Of a stretch of 5,513 nucleotides of DNA, positions 1 through 5,513 are shown in pieces. Made by a program: the position numbers and the translations under genes. The stretch's first letter is position 1. Every line of letters begins with the position of its first letter. This DNA comes from Nitrospira sp. (GTDB lineage Bacteria > Nitrospirota > Nitrospiria > Nitrospirales > Nitrospiraceae): assembly GCA_030456405.1 (NCBI GenBank), contig JAKDNQ010000161.1, positions 1 through 5,513 of the forward strand, in the 5' to 3' direction. The notes beneath the pieces were generated by a model, which was given only the letters and a program-made list of their open reading frames with translations, searched no databases and was not told the DNA's origin.

Positions 1-383
1 TTAGTGCCTTCCACAAAATACGAACGAAAGAGACTCTCCACCACTTCGTCCTGTTTCCCCTGCAGTGCTGAGCACCAGACCAGCCGATGGGCCGCAAAGG
101 TATTTGGCGTCCGCTGAATCTTCTCAAAGGCAAAGGGAATCCCTTCCTCTGCTCCGGCCGCGAGAAGTTGCTCTTTCATGCGGCCAAAAACCTCCAAACT
201 TCCAAACTTGGCCTTTAGATAGGTGGTCCGATCCATTCCTTCGAGCGGCATTGTCGGATTCAATTGAAATGGACGCCACGTCACTTGCACGTCGAGGCCG
301 ACCGACGTCAATGCCCGTTCAAGTCGTCGCTTCCCGACATAACACCAAGGACAGACGATGTCGGAGTAGATGTCGATACGCTT
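1..383 (-). CDS. FrnE/DsbA-like thiol oxidoreductase, C-terminus cut by window edge, no canonical start codon
   Basis: A DsbA-family protein with a thioredoxin fold, of the FrnE / 2-hydroxychromene-2-carboxylate isomerase-like group, which are usually cytoplasmic dithiol oxidoreductases. The reading begins RIDIYSDIVCPWCYVGKRR, with the CPWC active-site motif about ten residues from the N-terminus. It continues through WRPFQLNP, a typical post-active-site strand, and a helical insertion (RMKEQLLAAGAEEGIPF, then TPNTFAAHRLVW) to SYFVEGT at the left edge. About 127 of the usual 210-240 codons are present. No signal peptide precedes the motif. There is no ATG, GTG or TTG between the in-frame TAA (420-422) and the conserved start; the first in-frame ATG is well inside the domain. 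AAG at 381-383 stands where ATG is expected, 7 nt after an AAGGA sequence (391-395), so I take 383 as the original start. It may be a start-codon mutation, a rare AUC start at 375-377, or a sequencing error. Family assignment is firm; functional expression is uncertain. Confidence 0.85.
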
Positions 384-395: not shown

Positions 396-487
396 AGAAT
401 ATTTCTCCGAGCTTGCTCGTTACCTTCTTTCAAGGGGTGGTCTGGTTGGTCCCCAACTGCGCACGACCTTCTCACCCGCCCAACCCC

Positions 488-507
488 GGTCGCGTTGGAG
501 CGCGACC
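488..507. repeat. Perfect GC-rich hairpin, 7-bp stem with 6-nt loop
   Basis: GGTCGCG (488-494) and CGCGACC (501-507) form a perfect stem around the loop TTGGAG, followed on the plus strand by TTTTC. It has the shape of a weak intrinsic terminator for plus-strand transcripts, but no plus-strand gene precedes it. On the minus strand, where the neighbouring genes lie, no T-run follows the stem. Confidence 0.4.
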
Positions 508-599
508 TTTTCCCAAGCGACCACTACCCCCATTCTAATTGATCCTTCCGATCTCGCTCGTTCTCTCTTCAGGGATGGGGGCTGATGGATCTTCCACTG

Positions 600-640
600 C
601 GCGCGTCCAACGAGGGCCTTCTCAGGCCGCGCGTTGCGCG
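600..640. repeat. Long interrupted hairpin inside the spacer
   Basis: Three stems nest: CGCGC (600-604) with GCGCG (636-640), AACG (609-612) with CGTT (632-635), and GGCC (615-618) with GGCC (625-628) around the loop TTCTCA. Small internal loops separate them. The nesting is too orderly to be obviously random, although high local GC makes chance stems common. Confidence 0.35.
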
Positions 641-738
641 AGCACAGAAGATCATCGGCCTCCATCCCCTTCGTCGTGGGGGTTCCGTGAGCACGGGGGA
701 CCAACCAGGCCATCCCTCCCCCCTGCTGGCGGGCTTTT

Positions 739-1641
739 TCAGCGTTCTGCCAAGTGCCCCATTTTGCCGACGTTATAATCATTCACGGCTTGGACCAATT
801 CTGCTTTTGTATTCATCACAAACGGTCCATAGCGAGCCACCGGCTCATCGATTGCTTCGCCCGCCATCACCAGAATCGTGGCGTCTTCCTCTGCAACGAT
901 CTTCACCGGCTCCCCTGTCGAGACCAAGACTGCCAGATCGGCTTCCGATAATCGGTGCGATCCCTCTACGGATGCCTTCCCACTGAGGACCAACAGACCG
1001 ACGTTGTAACCGTTCGGAATCTGCAACGGCATCGAATGCCCCGCGCGCGGACGGAGATCGTACAATTCGACGGGCGTGAATGTCTTAGCCGGGCCTTTTG
1101 CGCCTCCCACCGACCCGGCAATCACACGAAGTGAACCGGCTCCCCCGTCCAACTGCACGACCGGAATCTGATCGTTCACAATCGTTTGATAACCGGGCGC
1201 AGACATCTTGGACGATTTGGGCAGATTCACCCACAGTTGAATGGCCTGCAACGTCCCGCCACGTTTGGCCCATTCCTTCTCATGCAATTCTTCGTGCACG
1301 ATCCCGGAGGCTGCGGTCATCCACTGCACATCACCCGGACCAATGACGCCCGAATTCCCGGCTGAATCTCGATGCGCCACAATACCCTGATAGACAATCG
1401 TGACAGTTTCAAATCCTCTGTGTGGATGCTCGCCCACCCCTCGCGGATGGTCCGTCGCTGGATAGAACGTAGGGCCCGCGTAGTCCAACATGATAAACGG
1501 GCTCAACTCACGGTCCAGATCGTTGCTGGGAAACAGATTCCGCACGTGAAATCCGTCTCCGACGACGTGCTGAGAGCCTGGGTGATAGACCTTCACCTGA
1601 TTCGTCTTTTCCACGTTTGCTACCGGCATTGTGTCTCTCAT
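739..1641 (-). CDS. Pirin-family cupin protein
   Basis: A complete 300-residue pirin-type bicupin, close to the family's usual length of about 290. Bacterial pirins are cytoplasmic metal-binding proteins; some have quercetinase activity and others act as redox-linked regulators, so the exact role cannot be read from sequence. The N-terminal cupin carries GEHPHRGFETVT (His72 and His74) and GIVHEE (His116 and Glu118), which match the four metal ligands of pirins, so this copy should bind metal. Also typical are the LFPSNDLDRELSPFIMLDYAG segment near the N-terminus and LQAIQLWVNLP in the middle. The C-terminal cupin begins around residue 180 (FTPVELYDLRPRAG). I chose ATG 1639-1641 because GGGAGGG lies 5 nt upstream; an in-frame ATG at 1665 would place that Shine-Dalgarno inside the gene, and ATG 1629 is too far from it. 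The gene has its own promoter upstream, so it is probably a separate transcription unit. Confidence 0.95.
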   Translation of the reverse strand: MRDTMPVANVEKTNQVKVYHPGSQHVVGDGFHVRNLFPSNDLDRELSPFIMLDYAGPTFYPATDHPRGVGEHPHRGFETVTIVYQGIVAHRDSAGNSGVIGPGDVQWMTAASGIVHEELHEKEWAKRGGTLQAIQLWVNLPKSSKMSAPGYQTIVNDQIPVVQLDGGAGSLRVIAGSVGGAKGPAKTFTPVELYDLRPRAGHSMPLQIPNGYNVGLLVLSGKASVEGSHRLSEADLAVLVSTGEPVKIVAEEDATILVMAGEAIDEPVARYGPFVMNTKAELVQAVNDYNVGKMGHLAER

Positions 1642-1645
1642 TGTA

Positions 1646-1652
1646 CCCTCCC
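1646..1652 (-). promoter_or_regulatory. Strong Shine-Dalgarno deciding the pirin start
   Basis: GGGAGGG on the minus strand, 4-5 nt before ATG 1641. It decides against the longer in-frame start at 1665, whose codons would run through this site. Confidence 0.8.
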
Positions 1653-1730
1653 TTCTCCGTGTCATAGGTCGCTATTCTTGATTACTCTACGACCTCCTTG
1701 AATACCTTTTACATTACGTGTGACTTAGAC

Positions 1731-2010: not shown

Positions 2011-2194
2011 CTAGCCCGCATTATTCATGAAGGTTCGTTGCGAAAGCGTGCAGACACGAAGCGAGACGGGCACTCGGAGCCGTAAAGTCCTGAGGCATAC
2101 TCGTGCAGTATGTCAAAGGGCTGAACGGCGAGACTGCCCGTCGCAGCCGTGTATCCGCGCTTGCAGCAGATGCTTCATGAATAATGCGGGCTAG
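2011..2194. mobile_element. MITE-like palindromic element with perfect 22-bp terminal inverted repeats
   Basis: The left end at 2011-2032 (starting CTAGCCCGCATTATTCAT) and the right end at 2173-2194 are perfect reverse complements over 22 bp; the match stops at the bases just outside. The CTAG at each tip is itself palindromic and may be a 4-bp target duplication, leaving 18-bp repeats (2015-2032 and 2173-2190) and a 176-bp element. Internal symmetry continues: GACGGGCA (2065-2072) pairs with TGCCCGTC (2135-2142), and a central hairpin CATACT/AGTATG (2096-2112) sits almost exactly at the midpoint. There is no transposase gene inside, so movement would depend on an enzyme encoded elsewhere, possibly of an IS family making 4-bp duplications (inference). 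The right tip contains the polymerase stop codon. The element may also act as a large stem-loop ending the operon transcript. Confidence 0.7.
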
Positions 2195-4491
2195 GCCTCC
2201 CTTGGCAAGTTGGCTGGCTTGCCATTGGCCGAGCCATGTGCATCGCGGTTGGTAAGACCGATAGGTTCGCGCAGAGAGGCCGCCGTCACACCGAAAGGCG
2301 CCAACAGCACGAGGGCCGCTTTCAGAAGCAGGTTGTCATAGGCTGAGACATCGTAGCTCCATGTCCCATCGAGCCCTGCCACTGCCCTCACACGATCGAA
2401 AGGACAAGCCGCGTCGGTATCCGTAATGATATAGTGAATCGTGTCGCCCGCTTGGAGCGACAAGCCGCGCGCGAGCAATTCCTGCGCAGCAATCATCGAC
2501 AGGGTCTGATGGCGGTAGGCGTGAGACTCTTTGGAGAGCGACTTCGCAATGGCCAGCTCTTCAATGGTGGCGCGACCATCTTGGAGATAGCGCCGATAGG
2601 TATGGACGATCTCTAAGGCCTGTGGAATCTGTTTGCGCAACTCTACCAGCGTCCCTGCTTCACTCAGACAGCGCAGCACCTCCGCCTGTGCCCGTTTGAC
2701 GAACCGAGGCGCATCGCTGCGACGGATTTCGATGCCGCGGATTTTCATCCCGCCATGGTCGAACAGACCCACGAACTGATTCGGCACCGGCATGAGCGGA
2801 TTGACCCGTGACGGGAAAAATCCAATCCAGCGATAGAGCCCCTCCACGCCGATCGAGAGCCCAGTCTGCTCAGTAATCGCCTGCGCGAGGCTGTCATAGT
2901 CTGCCCTGACCGCGCCGGGCTTGGCGAGCCAGAGCGAATCCACAATCGCGTGCAGCATGCGATAGCCCTGTTGCTCAGCGATCTCTTTCGCCTGCAACAA
3001 AATGTCACGACTGTAGGCCGTGACCGCTTCGTGCGCTTCGATCCGACCGAACCGGGCATTCTTGTACCCCAAATACCCGAACGAGACGACGAGCAGCCAC
3101 TTGAGCGCTGTTTGCCGTTGATCGAGCACCGCCCTCGCCGCCGGCTGTGTCGCCGCGGCCATGAGCTTCTTGTACCGCGCGCGCTTGTCGAGCAATGGAG
3201 CCAGCGTGCGAGGCACCAATCCCTGGCGCCGGAGGCAGGTATGGTGGCCGATCTCCGGCACCCGCGCGGTGGGCTCATTCCGGCAGCACCGGCAATTGAC
3301 CGTCTCGGGCGAGACGTTGAAGCGCACCATGATGGAGGGATACATCGAAGAGAAATCCAGCTCACCAACCTGTTCGTGATAGCCGGCGATCGGCGCGAAC
3401 ACCAATCCGCCCTGATCGGTCTGCAGCAATTCGAGCGCGGATTTGAAAGCTTCCGGCTCCTGCTTCCGGTAGGGAATCAACAGTCCGTCGCGGCAAGCCG
3501 TTTCGAGCTGCATCGAGGTGATCCCGGTCCCGGTCGTCGTGCGAGCCATCTGCTGCAGATCGACCTTCGTGACACGAGCCTGCTCGATGAGTCCGGCCAG
3601 GCCCGTTTCCGCCAGCGCGAAGGAATTGTGTCGATCGAGGTGCAACCGTCCCGACAGAGTGCGGGCGCCGGCATGGGACAGGATGCGGCCATACGAAAAA
3701 TACGAATGGGGCTTCCTGGCGCCGATGGCTCGATGAGGATCGCGATTGAGCGCGAGCGGCAGGCGCAGCCGATCCGCCACGGTCATGAGACGCGGCAACA
3801 GATAGGAATCGCCCCAGTCCGTCAAGAGAATGTCGGGGTCCTCCCGCACGAGCAGCTGGTTGAACCGCTGAATCACATCGGCATCATCTCCTTCCAGCAG
3901 ACGCTCCTCTCCATTCATCCGCACTACGAGCGAGGCGCACCCGCCATGATTCGGATTGGGAGACGGGCTGTCCGGCGACAGCTCCATGATCGTGAGAGGC
4001 GGCAGACCATAGTCCGTGTCCCAGGGCGACTCCAACGCTTGAATTGACTGAATCAAGCCCTCGTCTGTGAGGTTCGCCTCGCAATGGACGAGAGGAAAGA
4101 GTTCCCGATCGTAAAAGTAACGCTGCGGCAGCGACACATCCACGTGAAAGAACTGCGCGTCGGGGCAGGCACGGATCAGCTGTTGTGTGAGGGGCGAGAA
4201 CTGCGCGGGGGCGTGAACCGAGACTTCCAGCACCGGGATCGGGCGAAGCGCACCGAGTTCATATCGCTCTACTTCTCTGGTGCCGGTGCGACAGGAAGCA
4301 CGGCGGAGTAGCCGGAGCACCTGCTCGCGGATAGGCATCGGAGCAGCCACATAGCAGGTCGGCACAAAGGGATCGACGGCCCTGATGCGCTGACCGTCCT
4401 CACCGAGGAGCCAGACGACCATACCCTCTTGTGCCGGGTAGACATCAAGAAGCCACCCCGTGAGTCGAGTCGTGGGGCATGCGGGTTTCAA
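2191..4491 (-). CDS. Family B DNA polymerase lacking a functional proofreading exonuclease; probable translesion polymerase
   Basis: A 766-residue B-family (Pol II / archaeal PolB-like) DNA polymerase. Polymerase motif A is ELDFSSMYPSIM (377-388, catalytic Asp379). Motif B is KWLLVVSFGY (464-473). Motif C is HAIVDSLWL (514-522), retaining the second Asp (518) of the usual DTDS, with the first replaced by Ile. The thumb-proximal GMKIRGIEIRRSDAP (581-595) matches the KGLE-type motif. The exonuclease half is present but broken: the DxE of Exo I is IME (168-170), Exo II reads DPDILLTDWGDSYLLP (218-233) without the Asn and Asp, and the stretch that should carry Exo III appears deleted before residue 300. 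The start is TTG 4491: an in-frame TGA lies 3 nt upstream of that codon, and the next ATG (4422) would remove the conserved GWLLDVY. It overlaps the preceding gene by 47 nt. The neighbouring lexA suggests damage induction. Family is certain; the translesion role is inferred. Confidence 0.93.
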   Translation of the reverse strand: MKPACPTTRLTGWLLDVYPAQEGMVVWLLGEDGQRIRAVDPFVPTCYVAAPMPIREQVLRLLRRASCRTGTREVERYELGALRPIPVLEVSVHAPAQFSPLTQQLIRACPDAQFFHVDVSLPQRYFYDRELFPLVHCEANLTDEGLIQSIQALESPWDTDYGLPPLTIMELSPDSPSPNPNHGGCASLVVRMNGEERLLEGDDADVIQRFNQLLVREDPDILLTDWGDSYLLPRLMTVADRLRLPLALNRDPHRAIGARKPHSYFSYGRILSHAGARTLSGRLHLDRHNSFALAETGLAGLIEQARVTKVDLQQMARTTTGTGITSMQLETACRDGLLIPYRKQEPEAFKSALELLQTDQGGLVFAPIAGYHEQVGELDFSSMYPSIMVRFNVSPETVNCRCCRNEPTARVPEIGHHTCLRRQGLVPRTLAPLLDKRARYKKLMAAATQPAARAVLDQRQTALKWLLVVSFGYLGYKNARFGRIEAHEAVTAYSRDILLQAKEIAEQQGYRMLHAIVDSLWLAKPGAVRADYDSLAQAITEQTGLSIGVEGLYRWIGFFPSRVNPLMPVPNQFVGLFDHGGMKIRGIEIRRSDAPRFVKRAQAEVLRCLSEAGTLVELRKQIPQALEIVHTYRRYLQDGRATIEELAIAKSLSKESHAYRHQTLSMIAAQELLARGLSLQAGDTIHYIITDTDAACPFDRVRAVAGLDGTWSYDVSAYDNLLLKAALVLLAPFGVTAASLREPIGLTNRDAHGSANGKPANLPREA

Positions 4492-4735
4492 GAATCATCA
4501 CTTTCTGTTGTAATGCGATGACGTGTTTCTGTTGTTCGATCAACATAGACAACAACATCACCTCGAACGGCGTCTCGCGCGCAAGATAGGCGCCGGCTGA
4601 CGCATGGTGGCGGGCGGCAGCGAACAACCCATCGAGCGCCTGCTGGTCCTCACGCCGTAACGCACGTCGGTAGCGGCTCCACAAGTCGATTTCCTGCTGG
4701 ACCAATTGCGTGAAGGTGGCAAGCGTGCGCCCCAT
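4445..4735 (-). CDS. Small all-helical protein of the LexA-polymerase operon, function unknown
   Basis: A 96-residue charged, helical protein with no signal peptide or membrane segment. Predicted helices cover roughly residues 5-29, 31-46 and 56-84. The last (PFEVMLLSMLIEQQKHVIAL onward) has heptad-like spacing of L/M/I/V and may form a coiled coil. I know no firm function. From memory it resembles short haloarchaeal proteins that begin MGRT, carry a WS-[RD]-[FY]-RRALR motif and end with a LLSMLIE-type helix, but this is unverified. ATG 4735 follows the stop of the RecA-like gene after 2 nt, and its own end overlaps the polymerase start by 47 nt, so it is almost certainly translated with both. 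The wedged position suggests an adaptor or small subunit linking the RecA-like protein and the polymerase (inference). No strong Shine-Dalgarno is visible; translational coupling is likely. Confidence 0.85.
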   Translation of the reverse strand: MGRTLATFTQLVQQEIDLWSRYRRALRREDQQALDGLFAAARHHASAGAYLARETPFEVMLLSMLIEQQKHVIALQQKVMILETRMPHDSTHGVAS

Positions 4736-4737
4736 GC

Positions 4738-5448
4738 CTACAACCGATTCCAGAGAGGGCGCGGAATCATCCAGCGTCTGGGCTCAGCTCCTCCCTCTTC
4801 CCGGAGCCATAGCCCATCCTCGGCCTCGCACAGATCGATCACCCGGCGCGCCTGCGCGCGGAGTGCCGCCACAAATCGACTGCGTCCACCGGATTCAGGC
4901 GGCGCGAGCGGGGTCACGCATAACAATTGAATACACTGATCAGCCATGTGCTGTAAGGCCTCCGTCATGGCACGAAAGAGGCGCGTCGCTTCAGGCTCCG
5001 GCACCGACTGATCGTACAAGGTGTCGAGCGGGCCGGCGAGAATGACGAACCGCGCATCATAGGTGCGCAACGCCGACGGAAGACAATCCGTAACCAACCT
5101 GACCATCTGATGACAGGTGAAGGCCCGCGAGACGTGAATCTGTTGCAACACCTGATCCGGAGCCACCCGGCTTGCCCGAGCCAGCCGTCCCACCAAGAAC
5201 GGGTCGAAGACATTGGCGCCGGCCAGATACAACACCGGCTCGCCGGCCAATGCGCGATCGACCGCGGCACAGAGGCCCAGTCGATAGACCGATGACGGTC
5301 CAGACAACAGCACTAATCCCTTCCGCTGATCTGTGGACACCGCATTCCGCCGCATCGCCGCCAACAGATGGCAAGGCGCCTCGATAACTGCGCTGCCATC
5401 CGCTGTATGAAACGGAAGCTCCATCGCCTGCTGCTGCGCCTGAGCCAT
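4738..5448 (-). CDS. RecA/RadA-fold protein with degenerate Walker motifs (ImuA-like role proposed)
   Basis: A 236-residue protein with the pattern of the RecA/Rad51/RadA core. A hydrophobic strand ends in GPSSVYRLG (50-58) where GxxGxGK[ST] is expected. VLYLAGANVFDPFLVGRLAR (72-91) parallels the RadA segment after Walker A. VLQQIHVSRAFTCHQMVRLV (100-119) closely resembles the RadA VARAF-x-x-x-HQM segment. RFVILAG (133-139) occupies Walker B, and QLLCVTP (174-180) the following strand. The Walker A lysine and the Walker B aspartate are both missing, so ATP hydrolysis is unlikely. The family's N-terminal domain is absent. It follows lexA after 8 nt and precedes the helical protein by 2 nt. This recalls ImuA, the RecA-like accessory of lexA-imuA-imuB-dnaE2 cassettes, and archaeal RadA paralogues. 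ATG 5448 is preferred over GTG 5460 because GAGGTG (5453-5458) serves it. The fold is fairly sure; the role is inferred. Confidence 0.8.
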   Translation of the reverse strand: MAQAQQQAMELPFHTADGSAVIEAPCHLLAAMRRNAVSTDQRKGLVLLSGPSSVYRLGLCAAVDRALAGEPVLYLAGANVFDPFLVGRLARASRVAPDQVLQQIHVSRAFTCHQMVRLVTDCLPSALRTYDARFVILAGPLDTLYDQSVPEPEATRLFRAMTEALQHMADQCIQLLCVTPLAPPESGGRSRFVAALRAQARRVIDLCEAEDGLWLREEGGAEPRRWMIPRPLWNRL

Positions 5449-5452
5449 AGAA

Positions 5453-5458
5453 CACCTC
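5453..5458 (-). promoter_or_regulatory. Shine-Dalgarno of the RecA-like gene, overlapping the lexA stop
   Basis: GAGGTG on the minus strand lies 4 nt before ATG 5448 and shares bases with the upstream TGA (5457-5459). The overlap implies translational coupling and settles the start; GTG at 5458-5460 would have no comparable site. Confidence 0.6.
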
Positions 5459-5513
5459 ACGATTCGTTGAAATGGCGGATCACGCCCGCGACAATTCCCT
5501 GAATAGAAAACTC
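5457..5513 (-). CDS. lexA: LexA-like repressor, last 18 residues only (gene continues beyond the right edge)
   Basis: The minus-strand frame from 5513 reads EFSIQGIVAGVIRHFNES and then TGA (5457-5459). This resembles the end of LexA, where the last strand typically reads FTIEGLAVGVIRN in the E. coli type. UmuD and phage repressors of the same S24 peptidase fold end differently, so LexA is the better guess, but only 18 residues are visible and neither the DNA-binding domain nor the Ser-Lys dyad can be checked. LexA autocleaves on contact with RecA filaments and derepresses damage genes. As first gene of this operon it would control itself and the polymerase module. The operon promoter and any LexA box lie outside the window. 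Confidence 0.65.
   Translation of the reverse strand, partial: EFSIQGIVAGVIRHFNES

What the first reader, a model, noticed from the sequence alone, without database searches (positions are those of the whole stretch)
2191..5513. LexA-linked operon of RadA-like protein, helical small protein and exonuclease-dead B-family polymerase
Seen: four co-oriented, nearly gapless or overlapping genes with these signatures. Known: bacterial mutagenesis cassettes couple lexA with imuA (RecA-like), imuB and dnaE2. Inferred: this is a functionally analogous SOS mutasome built on a B-family polymerase. The RadA-like and helical partners look archaeal, and the polymerase resembles the divergent exo-deficient PolB2/Dpo2 type linked to damage tolerance in Sulfolobus. 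An archaeal-derived translesion module placed under bacterial LexA control would be an attractive and perhaps undescribed system.
Basis: partly seen in the sequence, partly recalled or inferred. Interest (0 to 1): 0.85.

Follow-up and report, generated by a model that had tools for sequence, protein, structure and literature searches.

The report
Nitrospira PolB2 error-prone polymerase operon
This is a Nitrospira-type copy of an already described gene set, of archaeal origin, thought to make an error-prone DNA polymerase complex for copying past DNA damage; what looks new is that in its relatives a phage-type self-cleaving repressor with its own DNA switch stands where LexA was expected.

Summary
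The operon is real. Minus strand: the last 18 codons of an S24-type repressor gene, an inactive RadA homologue (iRadA, 236 aa), a 96-aa protein beginning MGRT (PPB2) and an exonuclease-dead B-family polymerase (PolB2, 766 aa). Gene order is conserved; the nearest relatives are Nitrospira-type MAGs. The module is not new: Makarova 2014 described lexA-inactive radA-arCOG07300-PolB2 in Leptospirillum, and Timinskas 2025 modelled the PolB2-PPB2-iRadA mutasome. One correction comes from relatives: the upstream gene is not winged-helix LexA but a compact XRE/CI-type HTH fused to Peptidase_S24. It is the next upstream gene found in 18 of 24 PolB2-bearing genomes of the family sample; true LexA in 2; 4 cannot be read. 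In 24 of 24 loci read, a palindrome matching the repressor type lies between a TTGACA box and the start codon. The type-A palindrome was found once per genome (7 of 8, <=1 mismatch). Strong LexA and XRE-S24 did not co-occur among 147 genomes. Most likely: a translesion mutasome under a private autorepressor, convergent with HdiR and UmuDAb. Induction, binding and polymerase activity are untested. New variant of a known kind.

The parts
5457..5513 (-). 3' end (18 codons and stop) of the operon's S24-family repressor gene; in relatives a ~181-aa XRE-HTH + Peptidase_S24 protein
   Evidence: translation; 100% identical to the regulator C-terminus in L001, L004, L005, L007; Pfam of L004, L005, L007, L008 copies
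4738..5448 (-). iRadA: 236-aa Rad51/RadA-fold protein without the Walker A motif and without an N-terminal domain
   Evidence: the Walker A pattern is present in 0 of 40 aligned rows
4445..4735 (-). PPB2 (arCOG07300-type) 96-aa partner, begins MGRT
   Evidence: listed hits carry PF26485; my own Pfam scan of the window protein, listed no family over its cut-off; MGRT at the start of 108 of 120 listed homologues
2191..4491 (-). PolB2: 766-aa B-family DNA polymerase, exonuclease residues lost, motif C DTD replaced by IVD; TTG start

Best explanation
The operon encodes a PolB2-type translesion mutasome (PolB2 + PPB2 + iRadA) of a Nitrospira-type bacterium, kept off by the product of its own first gene, a CI/XRE-type S24 autorepressor. 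Proposed working: the repressor binds a 19-bp palindrome that covers the presumed -10 region and reaches the start codon of its own gene and shuts the operon (operator: shown by conservation in relatives; binding: inferred). RecA filaments on damaged DNA trigger self-cleavage at the Ala-Gly bond by the Ser-Lys dyad (residues conserved; cleavage inferred from the S24 family). The operon is then transcribed and PolB2, unable to proofread, extends primer ends past lesions, with iRadA docked as an inert Rad51-like subunit and a PPB2 N-terminal arm near the active site (assembly from the Timinskas 2025 models, not modelled here). The repressor appears private to this operon, so mutagenic synthesis has its own switch rather than a shared LexA regulon.
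For: Gene order and overlaps in window and relatives. Against E. coli Pol II and a woesearchaeal PolB: ExoI Asp->Ser, ExoII Asp->Leu, the ExoIII segment absent, motif C DTD->IVD. H[AG]IVDS in 33 of 33 rows, Walker A in 0 of 40 iRadA rows, MGRT start in 108 of 120 PPB2 hits. PolB2 rows split from the two other polymerases with 100/100 support (8 rows, long branches). Folds. Regulator of L004: HTH_3 1.3e-8, Peptidase_S24 1.6e-30. Cleavage Gly, Ser and Lys motifs present in 27 of 27 S24 domains compared. Operator geometry in 24 of 24 loci. Type-A operator once per genome in 7 of 8. No LexA DNA-binding domain found in those 8 genomes. Precedents: PMC8565304, PMC4104785, PMC11791011.
Against: No damage-induction, binding or mutation data. 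The window itself lacks the repressor's HTH and the operator; both are inferred from relatives. The -10 and start sites are sequence readings. 'Private' rests on a stringent pattern (at most 1 mismatch); weaker sites could exist. In type B and C loci about 0.2-0.5 kb lies between the repressor gene and the aligned start of iRadA, so read-through from the repressor's promoter is less certain there than in type A (8 nt in the window). The palindromes are imperfect in type A (7 of 9 half-positions) and in the LexA loci (5, 6 and 8 of 9 in three loci). No clamp-binding motif was found in this iRadA or PolB2, though many bacterial complexes have one. In ExoI the Glu column holds Asp in the window and Glu in L011. 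The first Asp of motif C is missing, so activity must be taken from archaeal PolB2 work.
Confidence: 0.8

Rival explanations
1. The repressor is simply the global SOS repressor of these bacteria (a functional LexA substitute, as in Bacteroidetes) that happens to sit by the polB2 operon and controls recA, uvr and other genes through weaker or different sites.
For: XRE-S24 relatives occur in 117 of 147 family genomes (E <= 1e-20), and all 6 genomes with a strong LexA DNA-binding domain lack them, as expected if they replaced LexA. Five of the six type-B-linked genomes had a single XRE-S24 match, the polB2-linked one. A CI-type S24 regulator runs a full SOS response in Bacteroidetes (PMC8565304, passages).
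Against: At <=1 mismatch the type-A operator gave one place per genome in 7 of 8 and the type-B operator in 6 of 8; by coordinates every listed place is the repressor's own promoter except one type-B place on a small contig (G001 C156) that was not resolved. In 220 bp before recA in 14 loci (12 in XRE genomes, 2 in LexA genomes) the best match to any of four operator patterns had 4-7 mismatches, about as in shuffles (lowest: L120, type B, 4 mismatches, 2 of 60 shuffles as low; 56 comparisons made), against 0 in the two own promoters tested.
Confidence: 0.3
2. The module is not a TLS polymerase but a regulatory or structural complex, the polymerase being dead (earlier view of PolB2 as inactivated; possible role in replication initiation).
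For: First Asp of motif C replaced, exonuclease dead, iRadA without Walker A. PMC4104785 proposed inactivation and a possible initiation role (passages).
Against: Motif A Asp, motif B Lys and the second Asp of motif C are invariant in 33 rows. The Timinskas introduction reports that Sulfolobus PolB2 is an active polymerase needed for targeted mutagenesis, and the results that it has Ile for the first Asp.
Confidence: 0.12
3. The upstream gene in this particular genome is a true LexA, as in Leptospirillum, and the XRE type is confined to relatives.
For: Only 18 residues are visible; true LexA heads the operon in 2 of 24 PolB2-bearing family genomes and in L011.
Against: The 18 residues match the regulators of L001, L004, L005 and L007 exactly, of which three are held in full and are type A, whereas the LexA-type proteins read here end otherwise. 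The window's PolB2 lies in a supported set of four rows (100/99) whose two labelled members are type A.
Confidence: 0.03

Closest known systems
PolB2-PPB2-iRadA mutasome (Timinskas 2025; Makarova 2014)
   Same: three proteins, bacterial gene order iRadA-PPB2-PolB2, dead exonuclease, altered DxD, missing ATPase site, MGRT arm, S24-repressor neighbour
   Different: repressor has an XRE/CI-type DNA-binding domain and its own operator instead of LexA (from relatives); no clamp motif seen
lexA-radA*-arCOG07300-polB2 locus of Leptospirillum ferriphilum
   Same: same four-gene set in a bacterium that I recall as a Nitrospirota relative (passage)
   Different: there the first gene is called lexA; its DNA-binding domain was not examined here
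HdiR (Streptococcaceae) and UmuDAb (Moraxellaceae) S24 repressors
   Same: S24 self-cleaving repressor in bacteria without LexA that controls itself and error-prone polymerase genes (passages)
   Different: they control Y-family UmuC-type polymerases; here a B-family mutasome; kinship between the repressors was not tested
ImuA-ImuB-DnaE2 cassette
   Same: RecA-fold protein plus accessory plus error-prone polymerase in one damage operon
   Different: C-family polymerase and inactive Y-family ImuB; neither is among the three proteins of this operon
E. coli Pol II
   Same: B-family polymerase
   Different: Pol II keeps its proofreading residues and DTD motif and falls outside the PolB2 group

Membership tests
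PolB2 mutasome (bacterial type) | gene order iRadA-PPB2-PolB2, same strand | tested here: met
   window; all three in order in 12 of 15 loci (L012 is cut by the contig end, L014 and L015 gave partial hits)
PolB2 mutasome (bacterial type) | 3'-5' exonuclease active site lost | tested here: met
   ExoI Asp and ExoII Asp replaced and ExoIII segment absent versus Pol II and a woesearchaeal PolB
PolB2 mutasome (bacterial type) | first Asp of motif C (DxD) substituted | tested here: met
   HAIVDS; H[AG]IVDS in 33 of 33 rows
PolB2 mutasome (bacterial type) | iRadA: Rad51-like core, no N-terminal helical domain, no ATPase site | tested here: met
   fold; Walker A pattern in 0 of 40 rows
PolB2 mutasome (bacterial type) | PPB2 small protein with N-terminal MGRT | tested here: met
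   window begins MGRT; 108 of 120 listed homologues; its helical fold was not modelled here
PolB2 mutasome (bacterial type) | beta-clamp motif in iRadA or PolB2 (frequent, not universal) | tested here: not met
   no QLxLF-like motif in the last 60 residues of either window protein; 1 of 33 PolB2 and 0 of 40 iRadA rows (regular expression only)
PolB2 mutasome (bacterial type) | translesion polymerase activity and damage induction | not testable with these tools
   needs enzyme assay and expression data
canonical LexA | N-terminal winged-helix LexA_DNA_bind (PF01726) | tested here: not met
   in relatives: HTH_3 instead; PF01726 not found in the 8 Nitrospira-type genomes searched. Not visible in the window itself
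canonical LexA | Peptidase_S24 with Ala-Gly site and Ser-Lys dyad | tested here: met
   (relatives)
HdiR/UmuDAb-like S24 repressor of an error-prone polymerase | non-LexA HTH + S24, own operator, next to a polymerase operon | tested here: met
   architecture and operator in relatives; regulation itself untested
HdiR/UmuDAb-like S24 repressor of an error-prone polymerase | RecA-triggered cleavage | not testable with these tools
   residues present
ImuA-ImuB-DnaE2 | C-family DnaE2 and Y-family ImuB | tested here: not met
   Pfam of the operon's three proteins: DNA_pol_B over cut-off, otherwise only Rad51 (0.044) and MGT5A_N (0.037) below cut-off
Pol II (proofreading) | intact exonuclease and DTD | tested here: not met
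   best NCBIfam Pol II model 63.8 bits versus 389.4 for NF004416, itself below its cut-off of 516

The most novel reading that the evidence does not exclude
In most of this bacterial family (Nitrospiraceae) a phage-CI-type S24 repressor family has displaced LexA. At the head of the PolB2 mutasome operon LexA and several XRE-S24 subtypes have been exchanged for one another (direction not shown), each with its own palindrome in the same promoter slot. The result is a self-contained mutagenesis cassette uncoupled from any global LexA regulon.
Probability: 0.45. Interest if true: 0.6.

Novelty: new variant of a known kind. Interest (0 to 1): 0.42.

Why it matters
It suggests that the bacterial PolB2 mutasome can be wired to a private, non-LexA switch and gives exact operators to test. 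The same promoter slot holds LexA-type or CI-type repressors in related genomes, a natural experiment on how damage-response circuits are rewired, and a further candidate case, after HdiR and UmuDAb, of an S24 repressor dedicated to an error-prone polymerase. The listings showed me no paper on SOS control in Nitrospira.

Tried and rejected
Proofreading Pol II: rejected. ImuABC cassette: rejected. Canonical LexA as regulator of this clade: rejected for relatives. A shared regulon including recA: no support. Whether the XRE type arose by swapping only the HTH: the S24 halves also form separate groups (XRE 20 rows, LexA 6 rows, 95/97), so whole-gene replacement is likelier, but rows are short and some branches long. 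A tree with the single archaeal row L015 gave a very long branch and cannot test archaeal origin; I take that from PMC11791011. In one search G050 was provisionally labelled type C; its HTH (L150) and S24 placement say it is a type of its own, and its operator cannot be seen because the contig starts inside the gene. Type C therefore has two read members (G057, G066). In one search types A and B each need one change, C and LexA two each when taken singly.

Limits. The LexA_DNA_bind control also rang in four archaea, so weak hits of that profile were not trusted; 'strong' (E <= 2.5e-11, 6 genomes) was set after seeing the list. 12 of 147 genomes were over the curated cut-off, and the other 6 of these, with weaker hits, do have an XRE-S24 match; 24 of 147 have neither a strong LexA nor an XRE-S24 match. 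Several PolB2 genes among the 24 are broken or cut by contig ends (for example G025, G048, G066, G094, G099, G136, G138). G099 has no PPB2 hit in the stretch fetched.
Full report
What is there. The window's minus strand carries a compact operon: the last 18 codons of an upstream gene (5513-5457), iRadA (5448-4738, ATG, 236 aa), PPB2 (4735-4445, 96 aa) and PolB2 (4491-2191, TTG, 766 aa). Gaps are 8 and 2 nt, and PPB2 and PolB2 overlap by 47 nt. The TTG start is also the aligned start in L004, and the GWLxDxY stretch before the first internal Met is conserved as far as L011. Of the 15 loci found with PolB2, 12 match at 74-92% identity and are titled Nitrospira, Nitrospiraceae or Nitrospirae MAGs; L011, L014 (Nitrospirae) and L015 (a woesearchaeon) match at 43, 50 and 24%. 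No whole genome is held for the window; that it is a Nitrospira-type bacterium is inferred from these.

The polymerase. Pfam DNA_pol_B 3e-40. NCBIfam's best model is a type B polymerase, 389 bits and below its cut-off; Pol II scores 64. Best PDB sequence hits are archaeal PolB enzymes, from 1.9e-50. An AlphaFold2 model (pLDDT 85.0, pTM 0.82) best matches 9N, Pyrococcus and KOD polymerases (E from 3.6e-42, TM about 0.6-0.7). Aligned with E. coli Pol II and a second woesearchaeal PolB, the ExoI Asp aligns with Ser and the ExoII Asp with Leu in the window, the ExoIII segment is absent from the six PolB2 rows, and DTD of motif C reads IVD; at the ExoI Glu the window has Asp and L011 Glu. In the 33-row alignment the IVD form is in 33 of 33. 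The motif A Asp (379), motif B Lys (464) and motif C second Asp (518) are invariant. In an 8-row tree the six PolB2 rows separate from Pol II and the woesearchaeal PolB with 100/100 support, with very long archaeal branches.

The partners. iRadA has a Rad51/RadA/Dmc1 core by model (pLDDT 85.6; Foldseek E about 1e-10, TM about 0.6), no N-terminal domain, and the Walker A pattern occurs in 0 of 40 aligned rows. PPB2 begins MGRT, the conserved arm of the published complex; 108 of the 120 listed homologues start with it. No clamp-binding motif was seen in either window protein.

Conservation. Of the 15 loci, 12 show iRadA, PPB2 and PolB2 in that order (in L011 with a 115-aa ORF between PPB2 and PolB2); L012 is cut by the contig end, L014 and L015 gave partial hits. 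In the genus group of L004's genome 9 of 32 genomes have PolB2; in the family sample 24 of 147, several only as broken or cut genes. The operon is patchy and in places decayed.

The regulator. In relatives the first gene encodes about 181 aa. Pfam gives HTH_3 and Peptidase_S24 for types A (L004, L005, L007, L008), B (L140) and C (L139), and LexA_DNA_bind plus Peptidase_S24 for L136, L137 and L011. VAAG, G(E/D/T)SM and T(I/V)K stand where E. coli LexA has its cleavage site, Ser and Lys. LexA_DNA_bind was not found in the 8 Nitrospira-type genomes searched, while the distant G007 (L011) has it next to polB2. Among the 24 PolB2-bearing genomes the next upstream gene found is XRE-S24 in 18 (G001, G002, G003, G006, G018, G019, G025, G041, G050, G051, G057, G066, G085, G099, G125, G136, G137, G138), true LexA in 2 (G044, G072), and it cannot be read in 4 (G008, G023, G048, G094: contig ends or fragments). 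In types B and C about 0.2-0.5 kb, not examined further, lies between it and the aligned start of iRadA. Six of 147 genomes have a strong LexA DNA-binding domain (E <= 2.5e-11: G044, G054, G062, G065, G072, G076); none of the six has an XRE-S24 match, against 117 of 147 overall; 24 have neither. The chance figure is 4.7e-5, with a threshold set afterwards and no correction for kinship.

The switch. Upstream of the repressor gene lies TTGACA at -37 to -40 and a palindrome ending between -2 and +2, in 24 of 24 loci read (12 type A, 6 type B, 2 type C, 4 LexA; two of the LexA loci have no PolB2). Type A: ATGTAACATTTTGTGACAT (one base changed in 3 of 12). Type B: TGTAACCATTGGTTACA. Type C: ATGTGACAATTTGTCACAT. 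LexA: GGTGTAC-N4-RTRCACC. Half-positions paired: 7 of 9 (A), 8 of 8 (B), 9 of 9 (C), 5, 6 and 8 of 9 (three LexA loci). So HTH type and operator change together while the slot stays. Repressor types are clustered on the PolB2 tree (4 changes, the least possible, where G050 was provisionally labelled type C), and the window's PolB2 sits in a supported set of four (100/99) whose two labelled members are type A. The type-A operator (<=1 mismatch) occurs once per genome in 7 of 8; in the eighth the contig ends inside polB2; the reversed-pattern control gave 1 site in 8 genomes. Seven of these 8 genomes also hold an unlinked type-B-like repressor, and the type-B operator was found once per genome in 6 of 8 (controls gave 1, 1 and 2 sites in three genomes). 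In 220 bp before recA in 14 loci no operator pattern matched with fewer than 4 mismatches, about as in shuffles, against 0 in two own promoters (loci).

Interpretation. The published work explains the three-protein module: Makarova 2014 (PMC4104785, passages read) described the inactivated RadA, arCOG07300 and PolB2 with lexA in Leptospirillum ferriphilum; Timinskas 2025 (PMC11791011; abstract, introduction, results parts 1-2 of 3, discussion read) named PPB2 and iRadA, modelled a heteropentamer, found only the order iRadA-PPB2-PolB2 in bacteria, and reported lexA enriched nearby. A 2026 survey (PMC12926913, passages) cites the PolB2 group and the predicted mutasome; it does not mention LexA. 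The new part is the regulator. Sanchez-Osuna 2021 (PMC8565304, outline, abstract and passages) shows CI-type S24 proteins running SOS in Bacteroidetes and recounts HdiR and UmuDAb, which control minimal regulons made primarily of error-prone polymerases. The Nitrospira arrangement looks like a further convergent case with a B-family mutasome. The S24 halves of the XRE family and of LexA form separate groups (95/97), which favours replacement of the whole repressor gene.

Not shown: binding, cleavage, induction, polymerase activity, complex formation. Statements about the literature are limited to the listings in an open-access library. Exonuclease, motif A-C, Walker A and -35/-10 readings rest on established family knowledge (recalled); the LexA catalytic motif was compared directly with E. 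coli LexA and UmuD.

Noticed in passing
window 2011-2194: About 184-bp element with perfect terminal inverted repeats of at least 20 bp (CTAGCCCGCATTATTCATGA), MITE-like; its right arm supplies the TAG stop of polB2 (2191-2193). A 19-base core with up to 2 mismatches has 8-85 forward hits in six Nitrospira-type genomes, 2 and 4 in two others, and 0 control hits in all eight; among the listed places facing pairs about 160-220 bp apart are common.
   Followed up: partly
window 420-782: ORF-like stretch that looks like a repeated Nitrospira intergenic element rather than a gene (impression only, recalled).
   Followed up: no
window 739-1665 and 3-311, minus strand: Pirin gene (Pfam Pirin 2.1e-32) and a cut ORF that reads like a DsbA/FrnE-type oxidoreductase (recalled likeness). 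A pirin-like ORF also lies about 4 kb beyond polB2 in L004 and L005, judged by its first residues.
   Followed up: partly
L134 (G065) and L135 (G054): lexA and an iRadA homologue (46 and 44% to the window's) remain next to each other with the GGTGTAC operator, but tblastn (E <= 0.01) finds no PPB2 or PolB2 in the 8-kb stretches: a decayed operon or iRadA with another role.
   Followed up: partly
L031 (G008): A further XRE-S24 repressor just before an ORF that reads like a Y-family polymerase (by eye): the repressor family may serve several error-prone polymerases.
   Followed up: no
L014, L060, L080, L081: PolB2 genes in pieces or carrying a stop: repeated loss of the module, or assembly errors.
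   Followed up: no
L117 (G008), recA promoter: An end of the same inverted repeat (one mismatch) sits just upstream of the recA start region.
   Followed up: no
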